Origin: Actinomadura sp. DC4
Lineage (GTDB): Bacteria > Actinomycetota > Actinomycetes > Streptosporangiales > Streptosporangiaceae
Direction of reading: 5' to 3'
DNA length: 64,000 nt
Assembly (NCBI RefSeq): GCF_030406325.1
Contig: NZ_JAUEQY010000004.1
Span: forward strand, 186,001-250,000
Both the position numbers and the translations under genes were made by a program. Below are positions 5,493-16,386 of this stretch, piece after piece. The notes beneath the pieces are model-generated. The model saw only the letters and a program-made list of their open reading frames with translations, did not search any database and was not told the DNA's origin. Every line of letters begins with the position of its first letter. Position 1 is the stretch's first letter.

Positions 5493-5626
5493 TATGTGCA
5501 ATCTACATCTATCCCGACCGCAACAGGTCGGTGTAACCCCGTGGAGCGCGGCGTGTCGCCTTGGCCGAGGCCAGCTCCGATGGCTATGAACGCCCAGGTC
5601 TCGAAGTGTGTTCCTCCAGACCTTCG

Positions 5627-5642
5627 TCAGGGCACTTTCAGA
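5627..5642 (+). promoter_or_regulatory. Direct repeat TCAGG-N6-TCAGA upstream of the response regulator
   Basis: Two half-sites with an 11-bp period, 32 bases before the GTG start. Twenty bases downstream lies CAGGAT (5663-5668), 6 bases before the GTG, a possible -10 of a leaderless transcript. The same repeat precedes four other promoters in the block and fits binding of an OmpR/PhoB-family dimer. Autoregulation is inferred. Confidence 0.65.
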
Positions 5643-5674
5643 TAATCCTCAACTCCGCAGGCCAGGATGGGACC

Positions 5675-6370
5675 GTGACCGAAGCGCGACTACTCGTGGT
5701 CGAGGACGAACCCAACATCCTGGAGCTCCTGTCGGGCAGTCTCCGATACGCCGGATTCGAGGTCGTCACCGCGACCGGCGGCGGCGACGCCGTACAGGTG
5801 GCCCTGCAGCGCCGCCCGGACCTCATCGTGCTCGACGTGATGCTGCCCGACATGGACGGCTTCGACGTCATCCGCAGGCTGCGCGGGGGCGGGGCGCACA
5901 TCCCGGTGCTGTTCCTGACCGCGCGCGACGCCACCCAGGACAAGATCCGCGGACTGACGCTCGGCGGCGACGACTACGTGACCAAGCCGTTCAGCCTGGA
6001 GGAGGTCATCGCCCGCATCCGCGCCGTGCTCCGCCGCGCGCAGGGCGGGCCGGCCGAGCCGCCGCCGCGGCTCAGCTTCGCCGACCTCGAGCTGGACGAG
6101 GAGAGCCACGAGGTCTGGAGGTCCGGCAAGCCGATCCAGCTCTCGCCCACCGAGTTCAAGCTGTTGCGCTACTTCATGACCAACGCCAACCGCGTGCTGT
6201 CCAAGGCGCAGATCCTCGACCACGTCTGGGACTACGACTTCCGCGGAGACACCGGGATCGTGGAGTCCTACGTCTCGGTGCTGCGCCGCAAGCTCGACAA
6301 GCTCGGCCCCCGCCTCATCCACACCCTGCGCGGGGTCGGCTACGTACTGCGCCTGCCGCCGGAGCAGTAA
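5675..6370 (+). CDS. OmpR-family response regulator (MprA-like)
   Basis: 231 residues. Receiver domain ~1-120 with phospho-acceptor Asp54 (LIVLDVMLPDMDGFDVIRRL), acidic pocket VVEDE, and KPF near residue 105. The C-terminal winged helix (residues ~135-228) has the OmpR signature SPTEFKLLRYFMTNANRVLS and ends HTLRGVGYVLRLP. GTG at 5675 follows a weak AGGATGG. It abuts the kinase gene with no gap (TAA then ATG). Length and the kinase/HtrA context match MprA of mycobacteria; orthology is not proven. It likely controls the TCAGG-repeat promoters. Confidence 0.9.
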   Translation: MTEARLLVVEDEPNILELLSGSLRYAGFEVVTATGGGDAVQVALQRRPDLIVLDVMLPDMDGFDVIRRLRGGGAHIPVLFLTARDATQDKIRGLTLGGDDYVTKPFSLEEVIARIRAVLRRAQGGPAEPPPRLSFADLELDEESHEVWRSGKPIQLSPTEFKLLRYFMTNANRVLSKAQILDHVWDYDFRGDTGIVESYVSVLRRKLDKLGPRLIHTLRGVGYVLRLPPEQ

Positions 6371-7852
6371 ATGCCGACCTGGGTGACCCGCCTGTCCGCA
6401 CGGACCCCGCTGCGGATCAAGCTCATCGCCGCCGTGCTGACGATGGTCGCCCTGGCACTCGTCGCGGTCAGCGTCGCGAGCGTCTCGGCGATGCGCGGCT
6501 ACCTGCTGGACAAGACGGACCGGCAGCTCACCGGCGCGGCGCGCGTGACGGCCCGGGTGATCAACCAGCCCGGGCCGTTCCAGGCCAAGGTGCCGGTGGC
6601 CGGGCAGTACATCTTCCAGGTACGCGACTCGACCGGAAAGCTCGTGACCGGCACGCCGCCGTCGATCTGGCGTGACCCCGTACCCGAGCCCGCCATCCCG
6701 CAGGACCCGTCCTGGCTGGCCTCCCACACCGCCGAGGCGGTCACGGTCGACGCGGTGTCCGGCGACGTACGCTGGCGCGTCCACGTCGAGCCGATCGACG
6801 GCGGATACGTGATCGTGGGCACGGATCTGCGCGACGTCGCCCGTACGGCCGGCCGTCTCGTCGGCGTCGAGATCGTCGTCGGCAGCATCGTGCTGGTCCT
6901 CGTCGCCGGGCTGGGCGTGGCGATCGTCCGCGCCAGCCTGCGGCCCCTGGTCAACATCGAGCACACCGCCGAGGCCATCGCCGCCGGCGACCTGTCCCGC
7001 CGGGTGCCGGACGCCGGCGCGGGTACCGAGGTCGGCCGCCTGGGCAACGCGCTGAACGGAATGCTGTCCCAGATCGAGACGGCGTTCCGCGCCCAGTCGG
7101 CCTCGGAGGCGACCGCGCGGGAGTCGGAGGGGCGGATGCGGCGCTTCGTCGCCGACGCCAGCCACGAGCTGCGTACGCCGCTGGCGGTGATCCGCGGCTT
7201 CGCGGAGTACTACCGGCAGCGTTCGGACGTCCCGCCGGACGAGCTGGACCGGCTGATCGGCCGGGTCGAGGACGAGGCCGCCCGCATGGGGATCCTCGTC
7301 GATGACCTGCTGCTGCTGGCCCGGCTCGACCAGCAGCGCCCGCTCGCGCGGCGGCCGGTCGACCTGCTCGCGCTGGCCGCCGACGCCGTACAGGACGCGC
7401 GGGTCATGGACGGCGACCGGGACATCGCGCTGTCGGTGCGGAGCGGCTCGGCCTTCATCGTGACCGGCGACGAGGTGCGCCTCCGGCAGGTGATCGGCAA
7501 CCTCGTGAACAACGCGCTCCGGCACACCCCGGCCGGCACCTCGATCGAGGTGATCGTACGGTCCGGGCTGCTCGGCGAGGCCCCGGCGGCCGTACTGGAG
7601 GTCGCGGACAGCGGTCCGGGCATGCCGGCCGAGCAGGCGGAGCGGGTGTTCGAGCGGTTCTACCGCGCGGACCCGGCACGCAGCCGCGGGGGTACGGGAC
7701 TGGGGCTGGCGATCGTCGCCGGCCTGGTGGAGGCGCACGGCGGCTCGGTGGAGGTGGACACCGCGCCCGGCGAGGGCGCGACCTTCCGCGTCGTCCTGCC
7801 GCTGGACCCGGACGCCGTCGAGGCCGACGCCGTCGAGTCCACGCAGTCGTAG
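6371..7852 (+). CDS. Sensor histidine kinase (MprB-like)
   Basis: 493 residues. Membrane helices at ~15-40 and ~161-186 enclose a ~120-residue extracytoplasmic sensor without cysteines; HAMP ~187-240. The HisKA motif SHELRTPLAVIRGF has phospho-His265, and the HATPase shows N box NLVNNALRHTP, G1 VADSGPGMP and G2 GTGLGLAIV. It autophosphorylates and controls the adjacent regulator. The PepD/HtrA-like gene next door recalls mprAB-pepD, where the kinase senses envelope stress; the signal here is unknown. Ends in Ala/Asp/Glu-rich residues. Confidence 0.92.
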   Translation: MPTWVTRLSARTPLRIKLIAAVLTMVALALVAVSVASVSAMRGYLLDKTDRQLTGAARVTARVINQPGPFQAKVPVAGQYIFQVRDSTGKLVTGTPPSIWRDPVPEPAIPQDPSWLASHTAEAVTVDAVSGDVRWRVHVEPIDGGYVIVGTDLRDVARTAGRLVGVEIVVGSIVLVLVAGLGVAIVRASLRPLVNIEHTAEAIAAGDLSRRVPDAGAGTEVGRLGNALNGMLSQIETAFRAQSASEATARESEGRMRRFVADASHELRTPLAVIRGFAEYYRQRSDVPPDELDRLIGRVEDEAARMGILVDDLLLLARLDQQRPLARRPVDLLALAADAVQDARVMDGDRDIALSVRSGSAFIVTGDEVRLRQVIGNLVNNALRHTPAGTSIEVIVRSGLLGEAPAAVLEVADSGPGMPAEQAERVFERFYRADPARSRGGTGLGLAIVAGLVEAHGGSVEVDTAPGEGATFRVVLPLDPDAVEADAVESTQS

Positions 7853-7856
7853 TGCC

Positions 7857-7869
7857 TGTCTGTCAGACA
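7857..7869. promoter_or_regulatory. 13-bp perfect palindrome after the kinase gene
   Basis: TGTCTG-T-CAGACA immediately after the kinase stop. The one-base centre suits a protein-binding site more than a terminator. It lies about 50 bp upstream of the TCAGG repeat of the htrA promoter. Confidence 0.35.
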
Positions 7870-7917
7870 CGTTCTAGGACTTGATCGCCTTTAACACAGG
7901 CCTTATTGCGGCAACCT

Positions 7918-7933
7918 TCAGGCGGGTCTCAGG
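7918..7933 (+). promoter_or_regulatory. Direct repeat TCAGG-N6-TCAGG upstream of the HtrA-like protease
   Basis: Perfect pair of TCAGG half-sites with an 11-bp period. A -10-like TATCAC (7965-7970) lies 31 bases downstream, one helical turn further than the 19-20 base spacing at three sister promoters. The transcript would carry a short leader with GGGGAG before the ATG. Confidence 0.65.
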
Positions 7934-7997
7934 GTGGATCCAGTCCCGCCCGCGATCCTCTGAGTATCACCAAATGAGGGATCTTGGGGAGTGAGCG

Positions 7998-9428
<1,431 letters not shown>

Positions 9429-9480
9429 CCGCCGAGCGAAGAGACGTGCGGCGCCCATGCCGCCCGCGGGGCACCGCCCA

Positions 9481-9515
9481 GACGGCCCGACCGGCACCCA
9501 TCCGGCCGGGCCGTC
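9481..9515 (+). terminator. Hairpin terminator of the HtrA-like gene
   Basis: 14-bp stem with one A/C mismatch (9481-9494 with 9502-9515) and a 7-base loop, 52 bp after the stop codon. No T tract. Confidence 0.65.
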
Positions 9516-9839
9516 CGCATTCCCGTACCGAACCGGGCCCCCGGCCATCCGTGAGATGCCCGCCCGAACGCCCCGCGGTGGTCACCGGCCCGGCCGCCGG
9601 GAGACGTCGAGTGACGTCATGGCCGTAGGCGTCGTGTTAGGCGCGCCGGGTGGCGTCGTAGACGAGTGAGGGCGCCTTCCCGACCCGGCAGCGAGCCGGT
9701 CCGGCCGGGCCACGCCGATCACCCCCGGCATGGTCCGACCCTGACCGCGGCCGCCATCCTCACTCCGGCGCGCACCCGGGTATGACAGATCTTCCAAGGC
9801 CCGTCCGGCGCGGCCGTCGGCTTCCGGGCGGGGTGTGTC

Positions 9840-9898
9840 GTCCTGTGGGGGATGCCCTCACCGTGCCCGGGCCAGGGTGAGGGCATCCCCCACAGGAC
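9840..9898 (-). terminator. Very long perfect hairpin after the efflux adaptor gene
   Basis: A 23-bp perfect stem (9840-9862 with 9876-9898) and 13-base loop, 54 bp beyond the stop of the reverse-strand adaptor gene. Likely terminator; unusually long and mismatch-free. Confidence 0.65.
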
Positions 9899-9952
9899 CG
9901 AGGGAGTCCGGCGGCGGCACCTCCGCCGGCGCCGGACTCTCCGGATCGGCCC

Positions 9953-11416
9953 TCAGGTGCCTGGGAACGTGCTGCTCGGGAAGCCGTCCGGGCCGGTGCC
10001 CGTCGGCAGGACCACGTGGTCGCCGGCGGTCAGGCCCGAGGTGACGGCGACGTACCGGTCACCGCGTACGCCTATGTGCACCGTCCGGGCGGTCGTTCGG
10101 CTTCCGCTGCGGACCAGGACCGTCGCCAGGTCGCCGGAGGGTTTCGGGTGGACGGCGGCGGCCGGGACGTACAGCGTGTCCTCGGCCTGGGCGGTCGCCA
10201 CCTCTACGGTCGCGCTCATGCCCGTGCGCAGGCCCGGCGGTGGTACGTCGTCCAGGGCGACCATCACGCCGAACAGGGCGCGGCTGCCGCTGGTCGTCGC
10301 GGCCGGGTCGACGCGGGCGACCGTGCCACGGTAGGTGTGGCCCGGCAGCATGCCCAGGCCGATCGTGGCGGCCTGGCCGAGTTTGAGCCGGTTCACCTCG
10401 CCGAGCGGGAACATCGCCTGGACCTGCAGGTCGTTCAGGTCGCCGAGGGTGACGAACGGGGTACGGCTCTGGCCCGCGACCTGGCCGCCGACCGTACCGT
10501 CCACGGCCAGGATCGTGCCGTCGATCGGCGCGGTCAGCTTCGTCGCGGCCAGGGTGCGCACGGCCTCGCGCTCCTTGACCTCGGCCGCGGTGACGCTCGC
10601 GGCGGCCAGTTCCACCGAGTTGGCCTTGCAGGCGTTGCCGCCGCCACCCCGGGAACCGCCGCCACCCCGGGAACCGTTACCACCGCCGAGGGCACCACCG
10701 CCACCGCCGCCCTGGCCGGGACGTCCCGAGGGACGGCCGGTCGGGGATCGCGTCGGCCGCGGGCTCGTACGCGTCGGCGTCGGGGTGGGCTTCGGCGTCG
10801 TCCGGGTGGGCGTCGGGGTGGGCCTCTTGGTCGGCCGCGACGTCGGCTTTGACGTCGGCCGCGACGTCGTGGGGGGCTTCCGCGTGGGGGACGGCGTCGT
10901 CCGCGTGGGCCTCGGCGTCGGAGTCCGGCTCGGCGTCGGCCGGGCGGTCGGCGTCCGGCCGTGCACCGCGTTCTCGCTGTATCCGGCCGCCTCGGCGCCG
11001 GCACCCCCCGAACCGCCAGAGCCCCCGCCACCGCCGCCCGTGCAGATCCCCTGCTCCGCCTTGTCGTAGGTGTCGTCGGCCGCGGCGACGCCCGCCTTGG
11101 CGACCTCGACCTGCGCCTTGGCGTCCGAGTCGTCGATGCGCGCGAGGACCGCGCCGGCGCTCACTTTGTCGCCCGGCGCCACCTCGATCTTCGTCACCGT
11201 GCCGGACGTGCCGAAGACCAGGTCGCGTGTGTCGGCGCTCTGTACGTTCCCGGCCGCGCCGGCGGTGGCGGTGACGTCTCCGCGCAGTACGGTCGCCTGC
11301 GACACTCCGCGCGCGGGCGAGTCGCCCACGGCGACCAGCCCGCTGGCGAGCACGACGACCGCGCCCGCGGCGAGCCAGGGGGGTTTGCGAACATCGCGCA
11401 GAGTCGGCCACTTCAC
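9953..11416 (-). CDS. Efflux periplasmic-adaptor-like (HlyD/MacA) protein with Pro/Thr/Arg insert
   Basis: 487 residues. N-terminal membrane anchor (~14-32), then split lipoyl and beta-barrel domains of the MacA/HlyD type (VTKIEVAPGDKVSAGAVLAR; LTAPIDGTILAVDGTVGG; C-terminal LYVPAAAV). At the tip of the helical hairpin the chain breaks into a ~135-residue low-complexity insert: Gly-rich, then a Pro/Thr/Arg/Ser tract (~154-230), then Gly-rich. The insert is bounded by the only two cysteines (Cys125, Cys262), possibly a disulfide closing the loop. GTG at 11416 has only AGGAT some 8 bases upstream, so the message may be leaderless. Divergent from a second adaptor; substrate unknown. Confidence 0.88.
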   Translation of the reverse strand: MKWPTLRDVRKPPWLAAGAVVVLASGLVAVGDSPARGVSQATVLRGDVTATAGAAGNVQSADTRDLVFGTSGTVTKIEVAPGDKVSAGAVLARIDDSDAKAQVEVAKAGVAAADDTYDKAEQGICTGGGGGGSGGSGGAGAEAAGYSENAVHGRTPTARPTPSRTPTPRPTRTTPSPTRKPPTTSRPTSKPTSRPTKRPTPTPTRTTPKPTPTPTRTSPRPTRSPTGRPSGRPGQGGGGGGALGGGNGSRGGGGSRGGGGNACKANSVELAAASVTAAEVKEREAVRTLAATKLTAPIDGTILAVDGTVGGQVAGQSRTPFVTLGDLNDLQVQAMFPLGEVNRLKLGQAATIGLGMLPGHTYRGTVARVDPAATTSGSRALFGVMVALDDVPPPGLRTGMSATVEVATAQAEDTLYVPAAAVHPKPSGDLATVLVRSGSRTTARTVHIGVRGDRYVAVTSGLTAGDHVVLPTGTGPDGFPSSTFPGT

Positions 11417-11461
11417 GGGCAAGGATCCTGGTGTGCGAAAGTGACGGCGACCCGAGTCCAG

Positions 11462-11477
11462 CCTGAGAGTTTCCTGA
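11462..11477 (-). promoter_or_regulatory. Direct repeat TCAGG-N6-TCAGG (reverse strand) upstream of first adaptor
   Basis: Perfect pair with 11-bp period read on the reverse strand, 45 bases before the GTG at 11416. CAGGAT, 31 bases downstream and 8 bases before the start, is a possible -10. It lies back to back with the forward-strand repeat at 11535. Confidence 0.65.
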
Positions 11478-11534
11478 AGGACGGCTGCCCGGCCGGCCGG
11501 GGGGCGTACGGCGGCCAAAGCACGCAGGAACCTT

Positions 11535-11550
11535 TCAGGGTTGCATCAGG
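11535..11550 (+). promoter_or_regulatory. Direct repeat TCAGG-N6-TCAGG upstream of second adaptor
   Basis: Perfect pair with 11-bp period, 33 bases before the GTG at 11584, preceded by AACCTT as at the htrA promoter. No Shine-Dalgarno lies between repeat and start, so a leaderless transcript is plausible. Confidence 0.65.
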
Positions 11551-11583
11551 TTCACCCCAGCCGCGTCCACAACGCTGTAGCGG

Positions 11584-12786
11584 GTGAAAGCCCTACTCCG
11601 TCGCCGGCGGCTGTTGATCAACGGCGGCCTGGCCCTCCTTCTCATCGTCGGTGTCGGCGTCGCGTACCTGTCATTGCACGACGACGCCGGTGCGTCCTCT
11701 CCCGGTCGCATCGGACGAGTGACCCGCGGCACCGTCGTGTCGTCGGTATCGGCGTCCGGTTCGGTCGCCAGCGCGAACTCCCGTGACCTCGCCTTCGGCA
11801 CCAGCGGCACCGTGGACTCGATCAAGGTCCATGTCGGCGACAAGGTGAAGAAGGGCAAGGTCCTCGCCACGCTCGACGACGCGAGCGCGCAGGACGGCCT
11901 GAAGTCCGCCGAGGCCTCCCTCGCCGCGGCCGAGGCGGGTGACACCTCGACCCCCTCCGGCTACTCCAGCTACATCCAGGCCAAGACCTCCTACGACAGC
12001 GCGAAACGCTCGCTCGACGGCACCGTGCTCAAGGCGCCCTTCAGCGGCACGATCGTCGCGGTCAACGGCACGGTCGGCGGCTCCTCCGGCGGATCGAGCA
12101 GCAGCTCCGGCTCGTCCGGCAGCAGCGGCTCCAGCGGGGGTACGGGTGCGAGCGGAGGCTCGTCCTCCTCGTCTTCCTCCAGCAGCAGCAGCTCCTCGTC
12201 CAGCAGCTCCGGCAGCGGGTTCATCACGATGGCCGACACCGGGAAGCTCCAGATCGAGGGAGAGTTCACCGAGACCGACGTCGCGAAGGTCAAGAAGGGC
12301 CAGGCGGCCTCGGTCACCTTCGACGCGATGCAGGGCACCCGGGCGACGGGCAAGGTCACCGCGATCGACCAGACCTCGACGACCACCAACAACGTCGTGC
12401 AGTACGGCGTGACGGTGACGCTGACCGACCCGCCCGCGGGCCTGCGCATCGGCGCCACCGCCACCGTCCAGGTGACCACGGCGAGCGCGCAGAACGTCCT
12501 GTACGTGCCGACCGCCGCCGTACGCACGGCCGGCGGGCAGAGCACGGTGACCGTCCTGTCGAACGGCAAGCAGACCCCCAAGCAGGTGCAGATCGGCGTC
12601 CAGGGCGACCAGGGCACCGAGATCAAGTCCGGACTCAACGAGGGTGACCAGGTCGTGGTCGCCAGCACCGGGACCACGGGCGGCACCGGATTCCCCACCG
12701 GCCGGTTCCCCGGCGGCGGCATCGGCGGCGGGGGAATCGGCGGAGGCGGCGGCGGAGCCCGCGGCGGCGCGGGAGGCCGTGGATGA
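11584..12786 (+). CDS. Efflux adaptor (MacA-like) with poly-Ser/Gly insert
   Basis: 400 residues. Membrane anchor ~11-30; lipoyl halves GTVDSIKVHVGDKVKKGKVL and LKAPFSGTIVAVNGTVGG; a very short helical hairpin (~103-145); barrel and membrane-proximal domain to ~355; Gly-rich C-terminus. Residues ~165-212 are a Ser/Gly spacer with 17 consecutive serines, where Gram-negative MacA continues straight into the barrel. It would couple the MacB-like pump to substrate capture outside the membrane, without any TolC. GTG at 11584. Its stop overlaps the ATPase start (ATGA), so these genes form an operon. Confidence 0.9.
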   Translation: MKALLRRRRLLINGGLALLLIVGVGVAYLSLHDDAGASSPGRIGRVTRGTVVSSVSASGSVASANSRDLAFGTSGTVDSIKVHVGDKVKKGKVLATLDDASAQDGLKSAEASLAAAEAGDTSTPSGYSSYIQAKTSYDSAKRSLDGTVLKAPFSGTIVAVNGTVGGSSGGSSSSSGSSGSSGSSGGTGASGGSSSSSSSSSSSSSSSSSGSGFITMADTGKLQIEGEFTETDVAKVKKGQAASVTFDAMQGTRATGKVTAIDQTSTTTNNVVQYGVTVTLTDPPAGLRIGATATVQVTTASAQNVLYVPTAAVRTAGGQSTVTVLSNGKQTPKQVQIGVQGDQGTEIKSGLNEGDQVVVASTGTTGGTGFPTGRFPGGGIGGGGIGGGGGGARGGAGGRG

Positions 12787-13505
12787 CGGTCCTCGACGTT
12801 CGTGACGTGACCAAGGTGTACGGCGAGGGCGGTACCGCGGTGCAGGCGCTGCGCGGCGTGTCCATGGCCGTCGAACAGGGCGACTACGTCGCGATCATGG
12901 GGGCGTCCGGCTCCGGCAAGTCCACGCTGATGAACATCCTCGGCTGCCTCGACGTGCCCACCTCCGGCCGCTACCTGCTCGACGGCACCGACGTGGGCAC
13001 GCTGGACGACCGCCGGCTGGCGATCGTGCGCAACCGGAAGATCGGTTTCGTGTTCCAGTCGTTCAACCTGATCCCGCGGATGACCGCGCTGGCCAACGTC
13101 GAGCTGCCGCTCGCGTACGGCGGCGTGAAGACCGCCGAACGGCGACGGCGCGCGCTCGCCGCCCTCGACCGGGTCGGGCTCAGCGACCGCGTGGAGCACG
13201 AGCCGAACGAGCTGTCCGGCGGTCAGCAGCAGCGCGTCGCCGTCGCACGCGCTCTCGTCACCGCGCCCGCGCTGCTCCTCGCCGACGAACCCACCGGCAA
13301 CCTGGACACCCGGTCGACCGCCGACGTGCTGGACGTCCTCGACGGGCTCAGCGCGGCCGGCCGGACGATCGTGCTCATCACTCACGAGGACGACGTGGCA
13401 CGGCACGCCAAACGCGTGGTCCGCCTGGTCGACGGCGACATCGTCGAGGACCGGCGTACGGCACACGTGAACGAGCCGCCGCCTGGGCTGGTGGGGCTGC
13501 GATGA
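12783..13505 (+). CDS. ABC transporter ATP-binding protein (MacB/LolD type)
   Basis: 240 residues with all ABC motifs: Walker A GASGSGKST, Q-loop FVFQSFNLIPRMTALANVEL, signature LSGGQQQRVAVARAL, Walker B LLLADEPTGNLD and switch His in ITHEDD. The Q-loop and signature are those of the MacB/LolD/FtsE family of mechanotransmission exporters. Start overlaps the adaptor stop by 4 bases; its own stop overlaps the first ATG of the 88-bp repeat. It powers the permease encoded 173 bp downstream. Confidence 0.95.
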   Translation: MTVLDVRDVTKVYGEGGTAVQALRGVSMAVEQGDYVAIMGASGSGKSTLMNILGCLDVPTSGRYLLDGTDVGTLDDRRLAIVRNRKIGFVFQSFNLIPRMTALANVELPLAYGGVKTAERRRRALAALDRVGLSDRVEHEPNELSGGQQQRVAVARALVTAPALLLADEPTGNLDTRSTADVLDVLDGLSAAGRTIVLITHEDDVARHAKRVVRLVDGDIVEDRRTAHVNEPPPGLVGLR

Positions 13506-13677
13506 CCGGGAACGAATCCGACGTAGCGAGCGGAGTGGCGGGTGAGGTACGAGCCCTCCGCGCAGCGAGTGAGGAGCGGTGAGCGACCGATGACCGGGAA
13601 CGAATCCGACGTAGCGAGCGGAGTGGCGGGTGAGGTACGAGCCCTCCGCGCAGCGAGTGAGGAGCGGTGAGCGACCG
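13502..13677 (+). repeat. Exact 88-bp tandem duplication carrying two minigenes
   Basis: Two identical 88-bp units, 13502-13589 and 13590-13677, fill the gap between ATPase and permease genes. Each begins with ATGACCGGG and encodes the same 26-residue peptide (MTGNESDVASGVAGEVRALR, then AASEER) ending in TGA, followed by GCGACCG and the next ATG. The first ATG overlaps the ATPase stop (ATGA); the third ATG is the permease start. GAGGAG in each unit lies 13 bases before the following ATG. This looks like a chain of coupled reinitiation sites or a recent slip duplication. Confidence 0.9.
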
Positions 13678-14949
13678 ATGACACGCGAAGTGCTCAGGTT
13701 CGCGCTGCGTGGCCTTGCGGCGAACAAGCTGCGCAGCGGGCTCACGACGCTCGGCATCCTGATCGGCGTCGGCGCGGTGATCCTGCTGGTGGCGGTCGGC
13801 AACGGCTCGTCCAAGCAGGTGCAGAAGAACATCGAGCGGCTCGGCACCAACACGCTGACCGTGTCGCCGTCCACGTCGGGCGGCGGCGGGCGCGGCGGCG
13901 GTGGTTTCGCGCGGTTGTTGGGTGGCGGAGGCGGTGCGGCCCAGCAGAGCGGGCCGCGTACGCAGGCGCGCGACCTCACCGTCGACGACGCGCGCGCGAT
14001 GTCCGACGCCTCGGCGGCGCCCTCGGTCAAGAGCGTCTCCCCGGTGGTGAACGCCTCGTCCGCGAACGCGACGTACGCCGGGACCAGCCACGCGATCCAG
14101 CAGTTCGTCGGCACGTACCCGGCCTACTTCGAGGCCTCCAACGATCCGGTCGAGCGCGGCACCTACTTCACCGCCGACGACGTGCTGAACGACCGGAAGG
14201 TCGTCGTGATCGGCCAGACCGTCGACCAGGACCTGTTCGGCACGGTGGACGCGATCGGCAAGCAGATCGCCGTCAGCGGCGTGAACTTCACCGTCGTCGG
14301 CGTGCTCAAGACGAAGGGGTCCTCGGGATTCCAGGACGCCGACGACGTCGCGATCGCGCCGCTGCCGGCCGTACAGGAGAGCCTGACCGGGTACGGGGCG
14401 CTCAACCAGATCGTGGTCCAGGCCAAGACGCCCAAGACCGTCGACGCCGCGCAGTCGGAGATCACCGACATTCTCGACCAGCGGCACGGCATCACCGGTA
14501 CGAACACCGCGGACTTCCAGATCCTCAACCAGGCGACGCTGCAGTCGGCGATCAGCAGTAGCAGCAAGACGTTCACCGTCCTGCTCGGCGCGGTCGCCGC
14601 GATCAGCCTGCTGGTCGGTGGAATCGGGATCACCAACATCATGCTGGTGACCGTCACCGAGCGGACCCGCGAGATCGGCATCCGCAAGGCCATCGGCGCG
14701 CCGCGAGGCGCCATCCTCGGCCAGTTCCTGGTCGAGGCCACCGTGCTGAGCCTTCTGGGCGGGCTGCTCGGGGTGGCCGCGGGCGTCATCGGCAGTGAGT
14801 TCAAGGTCGTGGGCGTCCAGCCGGTCATCGTCCCCAGCTCGATCGCGCTGGCCCTCGGGGTCTCCGTCGCGATCGGCCTTTTCTTCGGCAGCTATCCGGC
14901 CAACCGCGCGGCCAAGCTCCGGCCCATCGAAGCCCTCCGCCACGAATAG
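13678..14949 (+). CDS. MacB-like ABC transporter permease
   Basis: 423 residues. N-terminal membrane helix (~27-47), a large extracytoplasmic MacB_PCD domain with a Gly/Arg-rich loop (GGGGRGGGGFARLLGGGGGA, ~64-83), then three C-terminal helices of an FtsX-like domain (LLGAVAAISLLVGGIGITNI; RTREIGIRKAIGAPRGAIL). Works with the ATPase and adaptor as a mechanotransmission pump, probably exporting an antibiotic, peptide or lipid. The ATG at 13678 is used as it follows the second repeat unit and is reached by GAGGAG; an upstream in-frame ATG at 13630 would translate repeat sequence. Confidence 0.93.
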   Translation: MTREVLRFALRGLAANKLRSGLTTLGILIGVGAVILLVAVGNGSSKQVQKNIERLGTNTLTVSPSTSGGGGRGGGGFARLLGGGGGAAQQSGPRTQARDLTVDDARAMSDASAAPSVKSVSPVVNASSANATYAGTSHAIQQFVGTYPAYFEASNDPVERGTYFTADDVLNDRKVVVIGQTVDQDLFGTVDAIGKQIAVSGVNFTVVGVLKTKGSSGFQDADDVAIAPLPAVQESLTGYGALNQIVVQAKTPKTVDAAQSEITDILDQRHGITGTNTADFQILNQATLQSAISSSSKTFTVLLGAVAAISLLVGGIGITNIMLVTVTERTREIGIRKAIGAPRGAILGQFLVEATVLSLLGGLLGVAAGVIGSEFKVVGVQPVIVPSSIALALGVSVAIGLFFGSYPANRAAKLRPIEALRHE

Positions 14950-14957
14950 GAGCAACC

Positions 14958-15572
14958 GTGACTGGAACCCGGCGCAAGACCACTGATGCGCCACGGGAGG
15001 ATCTCAACACCTCCGACGTGCCAGAGGAGGACCTGCTGAACACCTCCCCGTTCGCGGGCGACCTGTCCGAGGAGCTCGCGGCCGAACCCCGGCCACGCCG
15101 CCGGCCGCCGTCCATCACCGTCATCCTCGGCACCGCGGTACTCCTCATCGCCGGTTTCGTCGGCGGTGTGCAGGCGGACAAGCACTGGGGTGCGAAGAAG
15201 TCGTCCGACCCCGCCGCCCTGCTCGGCCAGCTCGCCGCACGGCGAGGCGGCACGGGCGGGGCCGGCGGCCAGGGCGGAGGTTTCGGCGGCGGCCAGGCAG
15301 GACGGTTCCCGGGCGGCGCGGGTACGGGCTCGACCGGCCAGGGAGGCGCCGCCGGCGGCGGCACCACGGGCACCGTCAAGCTCGTCGACGGCGACACGAT
15401 CTACGTGCAGACCCCGAACGGGATCGTCCGGGTGAAGACCGGCAAGTCCACCAAGGTGACGGTCTCGAAGAAGTCGACCGTCAAGTCCCTCAAGGCCGGT
15501 GCGCCGGTGGTCGTCCAGGGCACGCCAGGACAGGACGGGACCGTGACGGCCACGAGCGTCCAGGGCGGCTGA
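14958..15572 (+). CDS. Membrane-anchored Gly-rich protein with DUF5666-like domain
   Basis: 204 residues. Acidic cytoplasmic N-terminus (~1-50), one membrane helix (PSITVILGTAVLLIAGFVGG, ~52-71), a Gly/Gln-rich linker (~90-135) and a C-terminal ~65-residue beta domain (TGTVKLVDGDTIYVQTPNGI... TSVQGG) resembling DUF5666/OB-type domains. GTG at 14958 with AGGAG; eight bases after the permease, so last gene of the efflux operon. Function unknown; position suggests an accessory of the pump. Confidence 0.8.
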   Translation: MTGTRRKTTDAPREDLNTSDVPEEDLLNTSPFAGDLSEELAAEPRPRRRPPSITVILGTAVLLIAGFVGGVQADKHWGAKKSSDPAALLGQLAARRGGTGGAGGQGGGFGGGQAGRFPGGAGTGSTGQGGAAGGGTTGTVKLVDGDTIYVQTPNGIVRVKTGKSTKVTVSKKSTVKSLKAGAPVVVQGTPGQDGTVTATSVQGG

Positions 15573-15580
15573 GCGCACGT

Positions 15581-15615
15581 ACGGCCGAGCCGGGTGTGGG
15601 CACCGGCCCGGCCGT
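15581..15615 (+). terminator. Hairpin terminator of the efflux operon
   Basis: 13-bp stem with one mismatch (15581-15593 with 15603-15615) and 9-base loop, starting 9 bases after the stop codon. A second GC hairpin (CGCGCGG/CCCGCGCG) follows near 15646-15668. Confidence 0.7.
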
Positions 15616-15758
15616 GAGCGGGGGCCGCGCGGGGGAGGGAGAGTCCCGCGCGGCCCCGGGGCCCGCGCGAGGAGAGGACCCGCGTGGGCACGCCGGCCAC
15701 CGCTACCGTTCGCCGGCCTCCACGCGGGAGGTCAGGACGGCCGCGGCGGCCGAGGGGG

Positions 15759-16310
15759 TCAGCTCGGGGACGGGCGCGGCGTCATCGAGGGCAGGAGCGG
15801 CTTGCAGGTCTTGAGCGCCGCGGCCACCTTCGGGTCCGAGGTGTCGAAGCGGCCGAAGAGCCCGTTGCCCGGACTGCGGCGGGCGCCCGGAGAGCGCTGC
15901 GCGCCGGGGGTGCGCCGCGCGCCGGGAGTGGGCGTCGGGAGCTTCACGCCGTGGTCGGACAGGCAGCTGCGGTACGCCTGCAGCTCCTGCATCCCGCGGC
16001 CGCCGCCGAAGCCGCCGCTGGGCGCCAGCGACTGGCACGCCTGACGCGCCGCCTGGTTCGCGCCGCCGGCACCACCGCCGCCGAAGAAGCCTCCGCCTCC
16101 GGCACCGCCGGACGGGCGCCCGCTGGGCCGCGCGGTCGGGATGTTCACACCGTGCTGCCGCAGACAGTCGGCGTACGCGGCGAAGCCACCCGACGCGCCC
16201 GCCGAAGCGGACGGCGAGGCCGAGGCCTTACCGCCGGAGGACCCGCATGCCGCGGAGAAGAGCAGGGCACCGGCCGACGCCAGCAGCACTCCGCCTTGGA
16301 TGAGTCGCAT
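15759..16310 (-). CDS. Putative lipoprotein with two short Cys-containing repeats
   Basis: 183 residues. Lipoprotein signal MRLIQGGVLLASAGALLFSA followed by lipobox Cys21. The mature part has two related blocks, FAAYADCLRQHGVNIPTARP and LQAYRSCLSDHGVKLPTPTP, separated by a Gly-rich stretch, each followed at a distance by another Cys (ACQSL, TCKPL). So two Cys pairs with an HGV(N/K)(I/L)P motif are present; this duplicated motif is found in small actinobacterial secreted proteins of unknown role. The ATG at 16310 fits the signal peptide. A degenerate TCAGG repeat just upstream ties it to the efflux regulon. Confidence 0.78.
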   Translation of the reverse strand: MRLIQGGVLLASAGALLFSAACGSSGGKASASPSASAGASGGFAAYADCLRQHGVNIPTARPSGRPSGGAGGGGFFGGGGAGGANQAARQACQSLAPSGGFGGGRGMQELQAYRSCLSDHGVKLPTPTPGARRTPGAQRSPGARRSPGNGLFGRFDTSDPKVAAALKTCKPLLPSMTPRPSPS

Positions 16311-16344
16311 GCAGCCGGATCGTGCCGGACCATCCTGGAACACG

Positions 16345-16360
16345 CCTGCGGTGAAGCTGA
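16345..16360 (-). promoter_or_regulatory. Degenerate direct repeat TCAGC-N6-GCAGG upstream of the lipoprotein
   Basis: Reverse strand, 11-bp period, preceded by AACCTT as at two sister sites. Ends 34 bases before the ATG; CACGAT lies 19 bases downstream as possible -10. Weaker match than the other four sites. Confidence 0.45.
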
Positions 16361-16386
16361 AAGGTTCCGCAATGCCGGGCGGCGTC

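What the first reader, a model, noticed from the sequence alone, without database searches (positions are those of the whole stretch)
5627..16360. Five promoters share a TCAGG-N6-TCAGG direct repeat: a two-component envelope/efflux regulon
The repeat, with an exact 11-bp period, occurs before the response regulator (5627), the HtrA protease (7918), both divergent MacA-like adaptors (11477-11462 reverse, 11535 forward) and, degenerate, the lipoprotein (16360-16345 reverse). The distance from repeat end to a -10-like hexamer is 20, 31, 31, ~20 and 19 bases: one face of the helix, shifted by one turn in two cases. Repeat end to start codon is 32, 33 and 34 bases at three promoters, suggesting leaderless messages. 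MprA of M. tuberculosis (from memory) binds paired 8-bp direct repeats and controls the neighbouring pepD, so site architecture and gene set agree. The regulon links proteolysis to a MacAB-like pump.
Basis: partly seen in the sequence, partly recalled or inferred. Interest (0 to 1): 0.78.

Follow-up and report, generated by a model that had tools for sequence, protein, structure and literature searches.

The report
Envelope-stress regulon with tandem PhoP-type operators
In a soil actinobacterium a two-component system related to PhoPR of mycobacteria appears to control itself, a protease, an ABC export pump and a lipoprotein, all in one locus, through conserved tandem DNA repeats whose sequence has shifted from the classical PhoP site.

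Summary
The repeat is real and more than chance. Three exact TCAGG-N6-TCAGG copies lie in the window (0.15 expected; 0 of 100 shuffles reach 3). The five promoters carry arrays of about four 11-bp units. Most of these arrays, with their distance to the start codon, are kept in the seven genus relatives held. A profile of 20 sites run over the 10.7-Mb genome (150 of 2552 candidates scored) finds the five promoters and one other site below E 1, which lies between converging genes: the regulon looks local.

The regulator is not MprA. Regulator and kinase are PhoP/PhoR-type: 66% and 48% identical to the PhoPR-type pair of one Mycobacterium, against 46% and 28% for its MprAB-type pair.

Most likely phosphorylated dimers bind in tandem and activate; three messages may be leaderless. 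Of 203 related regulator promoters, 112 carry such an array (1.9% of shuffles). The base before CAG follows recognition-helix residue 212 (N with A), suggestively, not significantly once kinship counts. No binding was tested.

The parts
5616..5653 (+). operator array before the response regulator: CCAGA-TCAGG-TCAGA-TCAAC, 11-bp period
   Evidence: central pair exact in 5 of 5 syntenic relatives with the RR start in hand and in L074 and L103
5663..5668 (+). putative -10 hexamer CAGGAT, 6 bases before the GTG start (leaderless candidate)
   Evidence: CAnnAT at the same place in 7 of 7 sequences examined
5675..6370 (+). PhoP-type OmpR/PhoB-family response regulator (Response_reg + Trans_reg_C)
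6371..7852 (+). PhoR-type sensor histidine kinase (HAMP, HisKA, HATPase_c)
7907..7944 (+). operator array before htrA: TGCGG-TCAGG-TCAGG-CCAGT
7998..9428 (+). HtrA/Do-type trypsin-like protease with PDZ domain
9953..11416 (-). MacA/HlyD-type adaptor, reverse (GTG start placed 45 bases after the repeat)
   Evidence: family scan was of the longer frame 9953-11518
11440..11488 (-). operator array before reverse MacA: GCAGC-TCAGG-TCAGG-TCGGG-TCACT
11425..11430 (-). putative -10 hexamer CAGGAT of reverse MacA, 8 bases before the GTG
   Evidence: same place in 4 of 5 sequences examined; a second candidate lies at 18
11524..11561 (+). operator array before forward MacA: GCAGG-TCAGG-TCAGG-CCAGC
11584..12786 (+). 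MacA/HlyD-type adaptor, forward
12783..13505 (+). MacB-type ABC ATPase
13678..14949 (+). MacB-type permease (MacB_PCD + FtsX)
14958..15572 (+). protein with a weak DUF5666 match (below the curated cut-off)
15759..16310 (-). predicted lipoprotein (by reading), no Pfam or NCBIfam match at E 0.001
   Evidence: scanned from 16313, one codon too long
16334..16371 (-). degenerate operator array before the lipoprotein: TGCGG-TCAGC-GCAGG-CCAGG
   Evidence: TCAG and a CAGG-type fourth box kept in 7 of 7 relatives
16319..16324 (-). putative -10 hexamer CACGAT of the lipoprotein gene, 8 bases before the ATG
   Evidence: window only

Best explanation
The locus is a self-contained regulon of a PhoPR-type two-component system in Actinoallomurus. 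The kinase senses an envelope signal (unknown; low pH or salt is a lead because M. tuberculosis PhoR responds to these) and phosphorylates the regulator. Regulator dimers bind tandemly to 11-bp direct repeats of consensus (C/T)(T/C)TCAGG, several per promoter, on one face of the helix, with the last boxes at about -35 of the promoter. They recruit RNA polymerase and switch on the regulator-kinase operon itself, htrA, both divergent MacA-type adaptors with the MacB-type ATPase, permease and DUF5666-like protein, and the lipoprotein. Several messages would begin at or next to the start codon. Shown by sequence: genes, arrays, conservation, spacing, kinship. Inferred: binding by this regulator, activation rather than repression, operon extent, leaderless starts, the signal.
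For: Regulator: PDB best match is PhoP of M. tuberculosis (E 5e-98; next protein, PrrA, E 6e-55). PhoP binds 7-bp direct repeats with a 4-bp spacer as a tandem dimer, extending to trimers and tetramers given proper repeats (PMC4832192, passages), which fits 11-bp periods and 4-unit arrays. Autoregulatory array: 112 of 203 PhoP-like regulator upstream regions score at least 15 of 16, against 1.9% of shuffles. Same-locus arrays across the genus. Own-genome profile: the five promoters at E 7.5e-6 to 0.05, one other below E 1. Leave-one-promoter-out: the HtrA and both MacA sites are each beaten by 1 non-training window of 336,286, from the same outside site (C98) each time. Between species the first box and the part downstream are more alike than the DNA upstream.
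Against: No binding, expression or 5'-end data. The window's own regulator site is weak: left out of the profile it scores -6.3 bits and 57 non-training windows beat it; it stands on its orthologues. No [TC]ANNNT hexamer was found in range at forward MacA (0 of 7), nor at HtrA in 3 of 4 sequences. The HtrA array is poorly kept in three of the seven relatives: E 1.1 in G002, E 0.5 in G004, no match up to E 5 in G007. A three-box site at C98 lies at no evident promoter. Two PhoP-like paralogues in the genome (64% and 60%) might bind instead. The genome profile scored only 150 of 2552 first-look candidates, and the five window sites were among its 20 training rows. The array template was chosen after seeing arrays.
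Confidence: 0.8

Rival explanations
1. The system is the local MprAB-PepD, an MprA orthologue controlling its neighbouring HtrA.
For: RR-HK-HtrA gene order; MprA-type box TCTCAG with 11-bp period in Mycobacterium sp. AZCC_0083; binding of the htrA promoter by C. glutamicum MprA, motif there TTTTCAGCAA (PMC12113857, passages).
Against: RR 46% and HK 28% to the MprAB-type pair, against 66% and 48% to the PhoPR-type pair; the MprA type lies outside the group of support 99.
Confidence: 0.04
2. The arrays are operators, but of another response regulator (one of the PhoP-like paralogues at C53 or C24), or are shared by several.
For: Paralogues of 64% and 60% identity exist in the genome, and OmpR-family boxes overlap in sequence.
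Against: Apart from one site at C98, the profile finds the arrays only in the locus of this regulator, its own promoter included, in the own genome; the regulator's promoter has one in the relatives seen. The paralogues have S or P, not G, at helix position 212, and no array scoring 15 or more before their own genes.
Confidence: 0.1
3. The regulator binds there but represses, the kinase signal relieving repression.
For: The arrays lie close to the -10 region; CutR acts both ways at htrA3 and htrB according to site position (PMC12802291, passages).
Against: The box pairs end 20 or 31 bases before the hexamer, an activator position as at the PhoB pho box (recalled).
Confidence: 0.15
4. The GGAACCTT in some arrays is the -35 of an ECF sigma factor, and the repeats are incidental.
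For: GGAACC in the forward MacA and lipoprotein arrays; ECF -35 elements are GGAAC-like (recalled).
Against: Absent from the window's regulator, HtrA and reverse MacA arrays; it does not explain the 11-bp period; CAGG followed by an A-rich spacer recurs in arrays of other PhoP-like regulators (by eye).
Confidence: 0.03
5. Chance repeats.
For: The two-box pattern with mismatches is not enriched in the window and occurs exactly 33 times in the genome.
Against: Exact copies 3 against 0.15 expected; conservation in position, phase and distance over the genus.
Confidence: 0.02

Closest known systems
PhoPR of Mycobacterium (PhoP box TCACAGC-N4-TCACAGC)
   Same: regulator 66% and kinase 48% identical to the pair of Mycobacterium sp. 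AZCC_0083; 11-bp repeat of a CAG-core box; autoregulatory array
   Different: aligned on CAG, the box reads CTC-T-CAGG instead of CTC-A-CAGG; helix residues equivalent to N212 and Y220 are G and V; targets are HtrA, a MacAB-like pump and a lipoprotein in one locus
MprAB-pepD of mycobacteria and corynebacteria
   Same: HtrA gene next to a two-component pair; TCTCAG-like 11-bp box
   Different: regulator and kinase belong to another branch; no MacAB genes known to me in that unit (recalled)
CutRS of Streptomyces
   Same: two-component control of HtrA-type proteases
   Different: CutR site is TAWATAAA (PMC12802291, passages)
MacAB pump
   Same: MacA/HlyD adaptors, MacB_PCD + FtsX permease
   Different: ATPase and permease are separate genes, two divergent adaptors, an actinobacterial host

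Membership tests
OmpR/PhoB response regulators | receiver domain plus winged-helix Trans_reg_C domain | tested here: met
   both above the Pfam cut-offs
OmpR/PhoB response regulators | tandem direct-repeat operators with about 10-11 bp period | tested here: met
   (sequence only, no binding)
mycobacterial-type PhoPR | closest kinship of regulator and kinase | tested here: met
mycobacterial-type PhoPR | TCACAGC box | tested here: not met
   the base before CAG is mostly T, not A, in the arrays; a changed variant of the box
mycobacterial-type PhoPR | helix contact residues N212, V213, E215, S216, Y217, Y220 | tested here: not met
   E, S, Y kept; N212 is G, V213 is I, Y220 is V (alignment; contacts from PMC4832192, passages)
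mycobacterial-type PhoPR | response to acidic pH or salt | not testable with these tools
   reported for PhoR in PMC10723718 (abstract and passages)
MprAB-PepD | MprA/MprB orthology | tested here: not met
MprAB-PepD | HtrA gene directly downstream | tested here: met
CutRS | TAWATAAA operator | tested here: not met
   no such box in the arrays by reading; consensus; orthology to CutRS itself not tested
MacAB | HlyD-type adaptor plus MacB permease with FtsX domain | tested here: met
MacAB | fused MacB ATPase-permease meeting the MacB equivalog cut-off | tested here: not met
   split genes, 260 and 208 bits against 966

The most novel reading that the evidence does not exclude
PhoP-family regulators across Actinobacteria mostly autoregulate through 11-bp CAG-core arrays, and the residue at the start of the recognition helix (212 in M. 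tuberculosis PhoP) tunes the base before CAG: N with A, G plus V220 with T, G plus Y220 more often C. The window would be one natural step in a stepwise specificity drift that rewired PhoP from a global regulator to a local envelope regulon, and base and residue could be read together from genomes.
Probability: 0.35. Interest if true: 0.62.

Novelty: new variant of a known kind. Interest (0 to 1): 0.48.

Why it matters
It gives a testable, apparently complete regulon (five promoters, one operator type) for a PhoPR-type system outside mycobacteria and links a surface protease with a MacAB-like pump. It also offers a natural series of regulator/operator pairs in which one helix position and one base vary, useful for learning how OmpR-family specificity drifts.

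Tried and rejected
MprA orthology: rejected. CutR: its motif does not fit. ECF sigma -35: rejected as the main explanation. Wider regulon: the exact two-box search gave 33 genome sites. Gene context was examined for 30 of the 33 (the three window sites among them) with a crude gene caller of my own. Sites before a rhomboid-like gene (L008) and a PspC-like gene (L027) looked attractive, but their spacing differs (17 and 46 bases by reading) and neither was listed by the profile up to E 10 (150 of 2552 candidates scored); their conservation in relatives was not tested. The only other profile match below E 1 (C98:51034) lies between two converging genes.

Arrays at more distant HtrA, MacA and lipoprotein genes: 13 genes tried, one of them without enough upstream sequence. 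Five reach the top score of 16, but the true start codon was known for few, so I draw nothing from it beyond L103, an Actinoallomurus MAG.

Specificity code. One search took 205 loci (203 had enough upstream sequence). I left out 18 of the 19 regulators from the Mycobacterium genome, keeping the MprA type; in the earlier count all 19 were in (133 regions, 69 with an array). Across boxes N212 has A in 56 of 94 and other residues in 12 of 130; G212 with V220 has T in 34 of 38; G212 with Y220 has C 24, T 14, A 7, G 5 of 50. By regulator, A in at least one of two boxes: 37 of 47 with N against 12 of 65 without (Fisher 1.7e-10); G212 against T, Fisher 0.007; both ignore kinship. With kinship: 4 pairs on supported branches, too few to test. 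On all branches of the best tree N212 and A agree in 6.9 pairs and disagree in 1.7 on average, median p 0.125. N212 and C go opposite ways (1.8 to 7.7, p 0.109). G212 against T gives no signal (3.4 to 3.3). Controls: I213 against A 1.9 to 2.2; N212 against G at the seventh base 4.6 to 7.1; N212 against T at the first 4.0 to 1.8, none significant. V220 changes only once on the tree. Counter-example: the MprA-type regulator has N and T. So it is a lead, not a result. The 91 of 203 regions without an array scoring at least 15 were dropped from these counts, and some rows are close kin or paralogues. The shuffles were of single letters.

Literature for novelty: searches (listings only) showed no paper on this system or on a residue-212 code. 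Passages were seen of PMC6629963 (a Streptomyces two-component system, no PhoP or direct repeat found), PMC3413638 and PMC10433416. The library holds open-licence papers only, so this does not show absence from print.
Full report
What is there. The window lies in a 10.67-Mb genome in 101 contigs. The nearest named record is an Actinoallomurus MAG (L103, regulator 98% identical), so I call the genus Actinoallomurus by inference. From 5675 to 16310 the genes are a response regulator, a sensor kinase, an HtrA-type protease, two divergent HlyD/MacA-type adaptors, a MacB-type ATPase, a MacB/FtsX permease, a protein with a sub-threshold DUF5666 match and, on the other strand, a lipoprotein with no family match.

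The observation. Three exact TCAGG-N6-TCAGG repeats occur in the window against 0.15 expected, and 0 of 100 shuffles reach three. With one mismatch there are six matches against 3.96 expected, so the loosened pattern alone is not significant, but all six fall in four of these promoters. With two mismatches there are 49 against 56.6. Written in 11-base lines, every promoter shows about four units, and period 11 stands out among periods 7-16. In the genome the exact two-box pattern occurs 33 times, so it is not specific in itself.

Conservation. In the syntenic loci of seven genus relatives (L061-L067; L065 lacks the regulator and HtrA, L066 the regulator start) the exact pair stands before the regulator in 5 of 5, HtrA in 3 of 6, forward MacA in 6 of 7 and reverse MacA in 4 of 7. 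Of the HtrA misses, L062 has one mismatch, and in L064 and L067 my search did not place the HtrA start. By the profile, HtrA sites are weak in G002 (E 1.1) and G004 (0.5) and absent up to E 5 in G007 (assignment by coordinates). The forward MacA miss (L065) has one mismatch. The three reverse MacA misses (G003, G004, G007) are recovered by the profile at E 0.011, 2.4e-4 and 0.009, and regulator and lipoprotein sites are found in all seven relatives at E 0.13 or better. The lipoprotein promoter has the exact pair in none of the eight but keeps TCAG and a later CAGG in 7 of 7 relatives. Distances to the start codon are constant: 32 for the regulator (6 of 6), 33 for forward MacA (8 of 8), and the same value for the lipoprotein in 8 of 8 (one search prints 31 because my query began one codon early; one search gives 34). 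HtrA has 64, or 66 in L063 (5 sequences). Upstream DNA is 30-56% alike between species, the first box 70-83%, the central boxes 94-100%, the part downstream 73-82%. The central boxes were the anchor for choosing those rows, and the downstream part reaches into or near the start codon, so box 1, box 4 and the spacers are the fairest evidence.

Extent of the regulon. A sequence-only profile of 20 sites from five promoters run on the own genome gives the five window promoters (E 7.5e-6 to 0.05), one site at C98:51034 (E 0.0045) and one at E 2.6. The C98 site has three perfect boxes but lies between the ends of an ABC transporter gene and a LacI-type gene. Only 150 of 2552 candidates were fully scored, and the window's five sites are in the training set. 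Leave-one-promoter-out scoring was run over 336,286 positions of own-genome DNA, including loci fetched because they hold the pair. It ranks the HtrA and both MacA sites behind one non-training window each, always the C98 site. The lipoprotein site is behind four (two registers of C98, a one-unit shift of the reverse MacA array, and L004). The regulator site is behind 57. The window's regulator site is therefore the weakest member by profile and rests on its orthologues.

Which regulator. The PDB search gives M. tuberculosis PhoP at E 5e-98, far ahead of PrrA at 6e-55. In Mycobacterium sp. AZCC_0083 the best of 19 regulators is 66% identical (E 1.6e-95); the regulator 1.6 kb before an HtrA gene, the MprA-PepD arrangement, is fourth with 46%. 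The kinase is 48% identical to the kinase next to the first over residues 13-477 of 493, and 28% to that next to the second. In the tree of 131 regulators the window falls with the PhoP types, and the MprA type (one row) lies outside a 117-row group of support 99 (the program warned of several long branches, that row's neighbours among them). That PhoP and MprA are the right names for these two rests on PDB kinship for the first and on the neighbouring HtrA gene for the second.

The box. The PhoP box in M. tuberculosis reads TCACAGC with a 4-base spacer, bound by a tandem dimer that can extend to trimers and tetramers, with N212, V213, E215, S216, Y217 and Y220 of the recognition helix facing the bases (PMC4832192, passages). 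In the window the helix is G-I-V-E-S-Y-V-S-V-L-R-R where PhoP has N-V-V-E-S-Y-V-S-Y-L-R-R. Aligned on CAG, CTCTCAGG differs from CTCACAGG by one base, the A6 pair, which N212 (through water) and Y220 (through water to T22', by the paper's numbering the partner of A6, my reading) contact in the structure. That register is my choice; aligning the first TCA instead would put the change elsewhere. Over 203 PhoP-like upstream regions, 112 have a strong 11-bp CAG array against 1.9% of single-letter shuffles; the set holds close kin, and the template was fixed. The base at position 6, not used in the scoring, is A in 56 of 94 boxes with N212 and in 12 of 130 with other residues; with G212 and V220 it is T in 34 of 38. 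When kinship is allowed for, the direction holds (6.9 pairs against 1.7) but the median p is 0.125, and too few well supported pairs exist to test. The MprA-type regulator, with N and T, is an exception, and a related subgroup with almost the same helix seems to have TAAGG-type boxes (by eye).

Promoter geometry and mechanism. The central pair ends 20 bases (regulator, lipoprotein) or 31 bases (reverse MacA) before a CANNAT-type hexamer: one 11-bp unit apart, the same face of the helix. The hexamer ends 6 or 8 bases before the start codon in these three, which suggests leaderless messages. At forward MacA and HtrA no such hexamer was found at that place in the window. The last boxes lie where a -35 would be, the position of an activator such as PhoB (recalled). 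I infer phosphorylation-dependent activation of all five promoters, autoregulation included. The signal is unknown. PhoR of M. tuberculosis responds to acid and salt (PMC10723718, abstract and passages), and Actinoallomurus strains were grown at pH 5.6 in one study (PMC6023020, passage), so acid is a lead only.

Novelty. An 11-bp direct-repeat operator of an OmpR-family regulator is a known kind, and so is two-component control of HtrA. What seems new is the combination: PhoPR-type proteins, a shifted box, a local HtrA-MacAB-lipoprotein regulon, and the phylum-wide set of autoregulatory arrays. Paper searches (listings) found no description, within an open-licence library only.

Noticed in passing
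G000:C10:48819-51373 (L068) and L069-L072: A second divergent MacA pair with ATPase and permease has, by eye, 11-bp repeats of TCATC/TCATG type instead of TCAGG between the adaptors; the window regulator has no tblastn match (E 1e-6) in the fetched 10.8-15.5 kb of any of the five loci.
   Followed up: partly
G000:C98:51034-51072 (L215): Three perfect TCAGG boxes with 11-bp period between two converging genes (ABC ATPase, LacI-type), the best site outside the window. In the genus search no relative had a site outside the main-locus contigs below E 0.03; the orthologous place was not looked at.
   Followed up: partly
window 13502-13677: An 88-base stretch is tandemly duplicated between the ATPase and permease genes (by reading); L066 shows one copy (printout).
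   Followed up: no
window 15759-16310: The lipoprotein holds two similar segments (YADCLRQHGVNIPT, YRSCLSDHGVKLPT) and has no Pfam or NCBIfam match.
   Followed up: no
L186, L203 (Mycobacterium sp. AZCC_0083): The MprA-type gene has TCTCAG-N5-TCTCAG before its start, and TCTAAG-N5-TCTCAG lies before the PepD-type gene (by reading), close to the window's box although the proteins belong to another branch.
   Followed up: partly
L083, L089, L090, L097 upstream of the regulator: A related subgroup with nearly the same recognition helix seems to have TTAAC/TAAGG-type instead of TCAGG-type boxes, so residues 212 and 220 alone would not set the box (by eye).
   Followed up: no
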